Source: Gossypium raimondii (taxonomy: Eukaryota > Streptophyta > Magnoliopsida > Malvales > Malvaceae). From it: DNA of 64,000 nt. Both the position numbers and the translations under genes were made by a program. Positions 6,032 to 7,900 of this stretch are shown piece by piece. The notes beneath the pieces were generated by a model. That model did no database searches and was not told the DNA's origin. It saw nothing but the letters and a program-made list of their open reading frames with translations. Each line of letters begins with the position of its first letter. Position 1 is the first letter of the stretch. The DNA lies in the NCBI RefSeq assembly GCF_025698545.1, contig NC_068575.1, positions 60,645,980-60,709,979 on the forward strand, written 5' to 3'.

Positions 6032-7345
6032 ATGGTGGACGGTCATGAGACTGACAAAAATATCGAGATATGGAAGATCAAGAAGCTGATTAAAGCACTC
6101 GAAGCAGCTAGAGGCAATGGCACCAGCATGATATCTCTCATAATGCCTCCACGTGATCAGATATCGAGGGTTACCAAGATGCTTGGAGATGAATTTGGGA
6201 CTGCTTCAAACATCAAAAGCAGAGTCAATCGTCAATCTGTGTTAGGTGCAATCACTTCTGCCCAGCAAAGGCTCAAACTATATAGTAAAGTTCCTCCCAA
6301 TGGGCTTGTGCTCTATACGGGCACGATTGTGACTGAAGATGGGAAGGAGAAGAAAGTCACGATTGATTTTGAGCCTTTCAGGCCTATAAATGCATCTCTT
6401 TATCTCTGTGACAACAAATTTCACACTGAGGCACTTAATGAACTTTTGGAATCAGATGATAAGTTTGGTTTTATTGTGATGGATGGTAATGGGACTCTCT
6501 TTGGGACATTAAGTGGCAATGCTAGAGAGGTGCTCCATAAGTTCAGTGTTGATCTTCCCAAGAAGCACGGGAGAGGAGGACAATCAGCTCTTCGTTTTGC
6601 TCGGCTTCGAATGGAAAAACGACACAACTATGTGAGAAAGACTGCTGAACTTGCGACACAATTTTTTATTAATCCTGCCACTAGTCAGCCTAATGTTTCA
6701 GGATTAATACTTGCTGGATCGGCTGATTTCAAAACTGAGCTGAGTCAATCAGATATGTTTGATCAACGGCTTCAGGCTAAGGTTCTGAATGTGGTTGATG
6801 TCTCTTATGGAGGTGAGAATGGTTTCAACCAAGCAATCGAGCTTTCAGCAGAAATCCTGTCGAATGTGAAATTCATACAGGAGAAGCGTTTAATAGGGAA
6901 ATACTTTGAGGAGATTAGTCAAGATACCGGGAAGTATGTTTTCGGTGTGGATGACACACTGAAGGCCTTGGAGATGGGAGCTGTTGAGATACTTATCGTA
7001 TGGGAAAATCTGGACATAAATAGGTACATGTTGAAGAACAGCGTTACCGGTGAAGTTATCATAAGACATTTGAACAAGGAACAAGAAGCTGATATGACCA
7101 ACTTCCAGGACTCATCCAACTCAGCTGATTTGGAGGTTCAGGAAAAGATGCCACTTTTAGAGTGGTTTGCTAATGAATACAAGCGATTCGGTTGTAGTCT
7201 CGAGTTTGTTACCAACAAATCACAAGAGGGTTCCCAGTTCTGCCGAGGGTTTGGCGGGATTGGGGGCATCCTCCGATACCAACTTGACATGAGATCGTTT
7301 GATGAGTTTTCTGATGATGGAGAAGTTTATGATGATTCCGAATAG
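6032..7345 (+). CDS. eRF1: Eukaryotic peptide chain release factor subunit 1 (eRF1)
   Basis: Intronless coding region of 437 residues, the usual length for plant eRF1. It recognises all three stop codons in the ribosomal A site and, with the GTPase eRF3, triggers release of the finished protein in the cytosol. Domain 1 carries the stop-codon reading motifs NIKS (60-63) and YLCDNKF (124-130). Domain 2 has the catalytic GGQ at 182-184 within [17 protein letters not shown], where the glutamine places water for peptide release. Domain 3, binding eRF3, fills the remainder and ends in the typical acidic tail after [11 protein letters not shown]. The first ATG gives [14 protein letters not shown], a typical plant start. 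All key residues are present. The stop is TAG followed by CAACCA, and an intron lies in the 3' UTR, suggesting feedback control. Confidence 0.97.
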
Positions 7346-7900
7346 CAACCAATCAACTCCACCCCATTAACGGTGCAGGATGATGGGGTCAAAAGCAAAG
7401 ACTGCACCAGCGCCCGAGCTGCTCGGGATGCCCCCAAAGTTTCTCATACATCTAATTAAGGTATGAGTTGAATTATAGTTGATTGATTCAATTAAATGGT
7501 GTTTATGGTTATGCATTTTGGTCATTCGGTAAATGCCGTTTAATCTAATTTGCAGCAGGCTTTATGTGCAGTATTGCGCGTCAACAGATCGATGTAGCAG
7601 CAGCTAGAATGTGTGAAGAAGGCTTAACTTAGAATCCCATGGAGCTTCATTTCTTCTATTTACTGGAGCAGGGCCCTACATATATAAAATGATATCCATA
7701 TGGTAACATACTTGCCTTAGGGTGTAGTTGTGTGGAGCTATTGATAATATATTTGGTTCATCTACTTGTTATGTTATGCCTAAATGATACCTTATCTCTG
7801 GACATTGTCGCCTGATATCCAAACTTTTGTGGAAGCTATGTTTTTCATTTTATAAGAGACCTTGTTAATATTATATAATTGAATGTCTATGAATATGTTT
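7346..7900 (+). promoter_or_regulatory. eRF1 3' UTR with readthrough motif and intron
   Basis: The TAG stop (7343-7345) is followed by CAACCA, which fits the tobamovirus-type readthrough context UAG-CAR-YYA. The frame stays open for 37 more codons to a TAA at 7457-7459. An intron follows at once: donor AAG/GTATGAG at 7461, acceptor 'tttgcag' ending 7555, with a second CAG three bases on. The intron starts 115 nt after the first stop, far enough downstream to mark the mRNA for nonsense-mediated decay. This is the layout of the plant eRF1 autoregulatory circuit. The 3' end is probably near 7880-7910, but no strong poly(A) signal decides it. Confidence 0.75.

What the first reader, a model, noticed from the sequence alone, without database searches (positions are those of the whole stretch)
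7340..7560. eRF1 mRNA carries a readthrough stop context plus a 3' UTR intron: a self-sensing circuit
The stop reads TAG-CAA-CCA, which fits the UAG-CAR-YYA context known to promote readthrough, and a GT-AG intron begins 115 nt later. Normal termination would leave a downstream exon junction complex and mark the mRNA for nonsense-mediated decay. When eRF1 is scarce, readthrough rises and the mRNA is spared. A readthrough/NMD feedback loop on plant eRF1 is described. The motif and intron placement seen here are exactly what it needs.
Basis: partly seen in the sequence, partly recalled or inferred. Interest (0 to 1): 0.85.

Follow-up and report, generated by a model that had tools for sequence, protein, structure and literature searches.

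The report
Plant eRF1 self-regulating stop codon
This plant gene for the factor that ends protein synthesis carries a leaky stop sign and a downstream intron, the known hardware by which the factor limits its own amount, plus a possible folded RNA knot after the stop that I did not find described.

Summary
Window 6032-7345 is an uninterrupted eRF1 frame ending TAG-CAA-CCA (fits UAG-CARYYA); a GT-AG intron is predicted exactly 115 nt after the stop. The readthrough frame runs 37 codons to a TAA one nucleotide before the exon junction, so a readthrough ribosome would clear the predicted EJC site. The genome holds three eRF1 genes: the C2 duplicate (dS 0.57) shares leaky context, following sequence and splice sites; the older C7 copy ends TGA-TAA and lacks them. 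This fits the published plant eRF1 readthrough/NMD autoregulation (Nyiko 2017, seen only through later papers).

One of 5,000 shuffles matched the window copy's stem energy, none of 5,000 that of C2. With two sequences there is no covariation, and the 15-nt spacer exceeds the 8 nt of readthrough retroviruses, so a readthrough role is plausible but unproven. I could not read the key paper to see whether it reports the knot.

The parts
6032..7345 (+). eRF1 coding sequence, uninterrupted ORF, 437 aa
   Evidence: best PDB match 8ip8, named eukaryotic release factor 1
7343..7351 (+). Leaky stop: UAG followed by CAACCA (Type I CARYYA context), TC1
   Evidence: CAATCA in the C2 duplicate; CARYYA definition in PMC5382211
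7346..7459 (+). Readthrough frame: 37 codons then TAA (TC2) at 7457-7459, 1 nt before the exon junction
7361..7369 (+). Pseudoknot stem 1, 5' arm (ACCCCAUUA; 7361-7367 perfect Watson-Crick core)
   Evidence: (I7)
7381..7389 (+). Pseudoknot stem 1, 3' arm (UGAUGGGGU)
   Evidence: (I7)
7372..7378 (+). Pseudoknot stem 2, 5' arm (GGUGCAG)
   Evidence: (I8); 9 bp in the C2 duplicate
7402..7408 (+). Pseudoknot stem 2, 3' arm (CUGCACC)
   Evidence: (I8)
7413..7427 (+). Local hairpin CCCGAGC/GCUCGGG after the pseudoknot, window copy only
   Evidence: (I9); interrupted by a 15-nt indel and changes in C2
7436..7441 (+). Predicted EJC position, 20-25 nt upstream of the junction
   Evidence: inference from the 20-25 nt rule quoted in PMC3711448
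7461..7558 (+). Predicted 3' UTR intron, GT 7461 to AG 7555 or 7558 (NAGNAG acceptor)
   Evidence: no RNA evidence
7559..7708 (+). First 150 nt of predicted 3' UTR exon 2, alignable to C2
   Evidence: its 3' end (poly(A) site) not determined

Best explanation
This gene carries the plant eRF1 readthrough/NMD thermostat. With ample eRF1, ribosomes stop at UAG (TC1), the EJC left by the 3' UTR intron stays on the mRNA about 90 nt downstream, and NMD removes the transcript. With scarce eRF1 a near-cognate tRNA wins at UAG-CAACCA more often; the ribosome reads 37 more codons, passes the EJC site and stops at TC2, one nt before the junction, so the mRNA is spared. Shown here: gene identity, stop context, open frame to the junction, alignable splice sites, conservation in one duplicate, absence in the older copy. 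Inferred: splicing, EJC deposition, NMD, eRF1-dependent readthrough. An extra layer that I think somewhat less likely than not (0.4): the conserved block 7361-7408 folds as an H-type pseudoknot that slows the ribosome near TC1 and raises readthrough.
For: UAG + CARYYA after an eRF1 frame, seen after only 2 of 1541 TAG triplets in the window. The C2 duplicate keeps UAG-CAATCA, 38 nt without change from 7361, and splice sites; 2 differences in the 54 nt after the stop, against 62 of 166 fourfold sites differing (P 6e-9). Both duplicates have an open readthrough frame past the EJC site, by different frames: the window stops 1 nt before the junction, C2 continues into exon 2. The C7 copy has TGA-TAA and no such element. 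Arabidopsis eRF1-1: CARYYA, 3' UTR intron, transcript raised in upf1-1 (PMC6755094). Pseudoknot: 1/5000 and 0/5000 shuffles as good, C7 none; second strongest of its kind on the + strand of the 64-kb window.
Against: No RNA, ribosome or NMD data for this plant. In Arabidopsis no ribosome footprints were seen past the eRF1-1 stop (PMC9293766), and the readthrough element only partially rescues that mRNA from NMD (PMC6755094). The open frame alone means little: 20 codons after the conserved part are open in 42% of 20,000 base shuffles. 113 of 1254 CDS windows of 57 nt are as conserved between duplicates, and the third-position test for RNA-level constraint is weak (P about 0.05; 17 of 420 CDS windows). 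Pseudoknot: all 16 pairs invariant, so no covariation; spacer 15 nt, against 8 in all 5 readthrough rows of PMC3835772; nested folding of the exon tail is not unusually stable (z -1.17), and in the window copy the full-tail nested optimum (-28.6 kcal/mol) contains neither stem; the pseudoknot energy is a stem sum without loop cost.
Confidence: 0.83

Rival explanations
1. The circuit works as published through the CARYYA hexamer and the intron alone; the pseudoknot is a chance fold and the conserved block is kept for another reason or is simply slow to change.
For: TMV readthrough is described as promoted by a 6-nt linear sequence (PMC9553062); the spacer of 15 nt lies outside the range 0-11 in the table of PMC3835772; no covariation; 113/1254 CDS windows equally conserved; a knot of this strength turns up once elsewhere on the + strand of the window.
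Against: Shuffle result 1/5000 and 0/5000, all pairs kept in the duplicate across a loop indel, no PK in the copy that lacks the leaky stop.
Confidence: 0.4
2. The conserved block is kept because it encodes a functional C-terminal extension of eRF1.
For: The frame is open in both duplicates and the first 18 extension codons differ at one amino acid only.
Against: Conservation of the reading frame ends at the 1-nt indel in the long loop: the window and C2 peptides then differ and end in different exons. No Pfam match at E up to 1. Third positions also nearly unchanged (1 of 17), though this test is weak.
Confidence: 0.1
3. The block is a target or boundary for NMD-linked cleavage: in Arabidopsis a UPF1-dependent 3' fragment of eRF1-1 starts 22 nt after the stop, which in window numbering falls within stem 1.
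For: PMC6755094 passage: 5' end 22 nt downstream of TC1, absent in upf1-1 and after cycloheximide; +22 is 7367 here.
Against: Not known whether Arabidopsis has the pseudoknot; the positional match is between different species and could be chance.
Confidence: 0.2

Closest known systems
Plant eRF1-1 readthrough/NMD autoregulatory circuit (Nyiko et al. 2017, gkw1303; not held, nothing of it read, seen only through passages of PMC11062462, PMC9293766, PMC6755094)
   Same: eRF1 gene, UAG with CARYYA, predicted intron more than 50 nt after the stop, downstream second stop
   Different: In this copy TC2 lies 1 nt before the exon junction; in Arabidopsis it is described as near the polyadenylation signal, in which the C2 duplicate with TC2 in exon 2 is more alike. 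A possible pseudoknot follows the stop; whether Arabidopsis has it was not tested.
Type I readthrough signal (TMV, UAG-CARYYA)
   Same: Stop codon and hexamer
   Different: Type I is described as a linear signal; here a possible compact pseudoknot follows
Type III gammaretroviral readthrough pseudoknot (Mo-MuLV gag-pol)
   Same: UAG, compact H-type pseudoknot: S1 9 and S2 7 here vs 8 and 7; L1 2 vs 1
   Different: Spacer 15 nt vs 8, no purine-rich octamer, 2 nt between stems vs 0, long loop 12 vs 18, stem sum -30 vs -41 kcal/mol (the two energies come from different programs)
Bacterial RF2 +1 frameshift autoregulation
   Same: A release factor senses its own level at a stop codon in its own mRNA (PMC5009743 passages)
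   Different: Frameshift to make the protein, not readthrough to spare the mRNA

Membership tests
Plant eRF1 readthrough/NMD circuit | Gene encodes eRF1 | tested here: met
   Pfam eRF1_1/2/3; PDB match over residues 1-437
Plant eRF1 readthrough/NMD circuit | UAG stop with CARYYA | tested here: met
Plant eRF1 readthrough/NMD circuit | 3' UTR intron more than 50 nt after the stop | tested here: inconclusive
   GT-AG at 115 nt, boundaries alignable in the C2 duplicate, but no RNA evidence of splicing
Plant eRF1 readthrough/NMD circuit | Readthrough frame open past the EJC site | tested here: met
   window: 37 codons to 1 nt before junction; C2: into exon 2; in C2 the only one of three frames open to the junction; open by chance in 42% of shuffles of the 20 codons after the conserved part
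Plant eRF1 readthrough/NMD circuit | Transcript is an NMD target | not testable with these tools
   needs RNA from NMD-deficient plants
Plant eRF1 readthrough/NMD circuit | Readthrough rises when eRF1 falls | not testable with these tools
   needs reporters
Type I readthrough (TMV-like) | UAG followed directly by CARYYA | tested here: met
   definition in PMC5382211
Type III readthrough (gammaretroviral) | Compact H-type pseudoknot after the stop | tested here: inconclusive
   Sequence can form it; no covariation or probing
Type III readthrough (gammaretroviral) | 8-nt spacer | tested here: not met
   15 nt vs 8 in 5 of 5 readthrough rows of Table 1
Type III readthrough (gammaretroviral) | G or purine-rich octanucleotide after UAG | tested here: not met
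   CAACCAAT follows the stop, 4 of 8 purines

The most novel reading that the evidence does not exclude
The eRF1 thermostat of this plant uses a composite readthrough signal not met otherwise in what I read: a Type I CARYYA hexamer joined to an H-type pseudoknot in a nuclear gene, kept without change in two duplicates while the peptide frame behind it drifted. The knot would set the gain of the loop by holding the terminating ribosome, and might also place the NMD-linked cleavage known from Arabidopsis.
Probability: 0.4. Interest if true: 0.62.

Novelty: new member of a known kind. Interest (0 to 1): 0.42.

Why it matters
It extends the published eRF1 feedback loop, as a sequence prediction, to another plant genome and gives an internal control: of three eRF1 genes found, two duplicates keep the circuit hardware and one lacks it. 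If the pseudoknot is real, it would be a structured readthrough stimulator in a plant nuclear gene, could explain how the loop's gain is set, and could be tested at once by covariation in other plant eRF1 genes.

Tried and rejected
Relatives from elsewhere: I know of no plant genome in the collections here other than the window's own, and found none. A scan of viral contigs for eRF1 relatives gave 5 pattern stretches, none confirmed. A 19-base string from the knot in genome contigs gave 2 exact matches in bacteria (Reinekea, Eisenbergiella), taken as chance and not followed. Rfam at E up to 10 over 5900-8000: 3 matches, all below gathering score and none in the element. Paper text search for six sequence strings: 0 papers. 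Own genome: DNA query 7320-7460 finds the window and C2 only; the 27-base PK core with up to 3 mismatches finds the same two places; the stop-to-S1 pattern finds these two without mismatch and 18 more with 2-3 mismatches, 20 in all against 19 for the reversed control, so noise; the best of these 18, L014, lies in DNA that looks like a retroelement by eye. A search on a recalled lead, an eRF1 3' UTR intron in Neurospora, listed 8 of 32 papers; of these I opened PMC9661723 only, by passages.

Rejected: extension peptide as the conserved object (frame lost at the loop indel). Rejected as overstatement: the P of 6e-9 alone as proof of RNA structure, because parts of the CDS are equally conserved. 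Strength of the knot: on the + strand of 64 kb, 8 H-type knots (some overlapping) have stem sums of -25 or better, and one (51983-52039) is slightly stronger, so a knot of this strength comes about once per 30-60 kb of strand. Of the 4 of 8524 control windows, two must be this very site, reckoned from its position and the 15-nt step; the call did not list them. Looking for a pseudoknot was decided after seeing the inverted repeats, so the shuffle figures are not free of choice.

Full report
Observation. The window holds an uninterrupted ORF at 6032-7345 of 437 codons with all three eRF1 Pfam domains. It ends TAG at 7343-7345, followed by CAACCA, which fits CARYYA. A GT donor stands at 7461, 115 nt after the stop, with an acceptor at 7555 or, three bases on, at 7558. 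In the window 2 of 1541 TAG triplets in any frame on either strand are followed by CARYYA, this one included.

Readthrough frame. Past the stop the frame runs 37 codons to TAA at 7457-7459, with one base left before the donor. The EJC is placed 20-25 nt upstream of a junction, and plant introns more than 50 nt after a stop can trigger NMD (PMC3711448, abstract and passages). A ribosome that stops at TC1 would therefore leave the EJC in place, and one that reads to TC2 would pass over it. This is inference from the rules, not a measurement. The open frame is no strong evidence by itself: the 20 codons after the conserved part are open in 42% of 20,000 base shuffles.

Copies in the genome. The 750.8-Mb genome of the window has 3 matches to the protein: the window (C11), C2 (94%) and C7 (93%). 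Window and C2 differ at 62 of 166 fourfold sites (dS 0.565); both are saturated against C7, so C7 is the older branch. C2 ends UAG-CAAUCA; C7 ends UGA-UAA and its 3' UTR does not align meaningfully. Two of three copies thus carry the leaky context. DNA and pattern searches of the genome find only these two places for the element.

Conservation. In the 54 nt after the stop window and C2 differ at 2 positions, one of them the allowed Y to Y change in the hexamer. At the fourfold rate the chance is 6e-9. Against this, 113 of 1254 CDS windows of 57 nt are just as similar, so the block is as constrained as the better-kept parts of the protein, no more. From 7361 on, 38 nt are identical; the longest CDS runs are 44, 38 and 35. 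Third positions of the first 17 extension codons differ once; 17 of 420 CDS windows do no worse (binomial P about 0.05), so separating RNA from protein constraint by this test is weak. The better argument is that a 1-nt indel in the loop shifts the frame: beyond it the two peptides differ. C2 reads through the junction to a stop in exon 2, the window copy stops just before the junction. What both share is an RNA block and an open path to the EJC.

Pseudoknot. Two interleaved inverted repeats stand after the stop (I7 and I8). S1 is 7361-7367 with 7383-7389, extendable by a U-G and an A-U pair to 7369 and 7381; S2 is 7372-7378 with 7402-7408; with the longer S1 the loops are 2 nt, 2 nt and 12 nt, the last A-rich. 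In C2 S2 has 9 perfect pairs. Stem sums are -30.45 (window) and -36.07 (C2) kcal/mol for the perfect stems; 1 of 5000 and 0 of 5000 dinucleotide shuffles of the 75 nt after the stop do as well, and C7 has no such fold. Over the 64-kb window it is second on the + strand, so a knot this strong is expected about once per 30-60 kb of strand. All 16 pairs are kept in both copies and none varies: consistent, but no covariation. With the first 12 nt masked, as under a ribosome, the nested minimum-energy fold contains S1 in both copies; without masking, that of the window copy contains neither S1 nor S2, that of C2 contains S1. The exon tail of the window copy is not unusually stable as a nested fold (z -1.17). 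No pseudoknot energy program was run, so loop costs are not included.

Comparison. A review and a research paper divide readthrough signals into Type I (UAG-CARYYA), Type II (UGA-CGG/CUA, often with a stem-loop about 8 nt, or 6-12 nt, on) and Type III (UAG, purine-rich octamer, 3' structure or compact pseudoknot) (PMC5382211 and PMC11166343, passages). Here a Type I hexamer would be joined to a Type III-like knot. The 5 readthrough rows in Table 1 of PMC3835772 (section 12 and passages) have spacers of 8 nt, S1 of 8-9, S2 of 6-7, L1 of 1-2 and no bases between stems; here the spacer is 15 and there are 2 bases between stems. It is not a Type III member: spacing and octamer were tested and not met. 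Whether it works like one is open.

Literature. The circuit is described as known in PMC11062462, PMC9293766 and PMC6755094 (passages only), all citing Nyiko et al. 2017, which is not held and of which I read nothing. PMC6755094 adds that full-length Arabidopsis eRF1-1 mRNA rises in upf1-1, that readthrough only partially rescues it, and that a UPF1-dependent 3' fragment starts 22 nt after the stop; in window numbering that is 7367, within S1. PMC9293766 reports no ribosome footprints past the eRF1-1 stop. Readthrough as low as 1.5% is said to give substantial NMD resistance, and a viral readthrough element protects an NMD reporter in N. benthamiana (PMC6277124, passages). Other papers seen by passages: PMC5009743, PMC9553062, PMC9661723. 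In one search (20 of 141 listed, papers with most terms first) only the first paper holds all four of eRF1-1, pseudoknot, readthrough and plant; it is PMC9293766, where the word pseudoknot occurs once, in a general sentence. Searches (20 of 53 listed; 4 of 4; 12 of 96; 12 of 42) listed no title on an eRF1 pseudoknot; most listed papers were not opened. The key paper being unread, I make no claim that the knot is unpublished.

Verdict. Circuit hardware present and used: likely (0.83), known mechanism, new gene copies. Composite signal with a working pseudoknot: 0.4.

Noticed in passing
window 8719-8826 and 10295-10402: Two tRNA-Leu (CAG) genes on the minus strand sit in a 108-nt direct repeat, 92% identical, 1576 nt apart, with further repeated flanks: a local duplication.
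   Followed up: partly
window 11654-11740: tRNA-Ser (GGA) gene on the minus strand, third tRNA gene within 3 kb.
   Followed up: no
window 51983-52039: The strongest perfect-stem H-type pseudoknot of the + strand (-30.69, stems 12 and 8 bp), which also reads on the minus strand.
   Followed up: no
window 6667-6726: A strong possible pseudoknot inside the eRF1 coding sequence (stems 11 and 6 bp, -29.7). Not compared with the duplicates.
   Followed up: no
L005, C7 eRF1 copy: The third eRF1 gene ends in tandem stops UGA-UAA, so eRF1 dosage may come from one unregulated and two self-limiting genes (the dosage idea is inference).
   Followed up: partly
G000; L014: Genome size (750.8 Mb) and a repeat with a cotton-like look suggest a diploid Gossypium; this is recalled, not tested. 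The window/C2 dS of 0.57 would fit its old polyploidy (also recalled).
   Followed up: no
window 32122-33309, 47341-49236, 55066-55788: Other long ORFs look like a TCP transcription factor, an RCC1/FYVE-type protein and a pectin methylesterase inhibitor-like protein, judged by eye from the translations.
   Followed up: no
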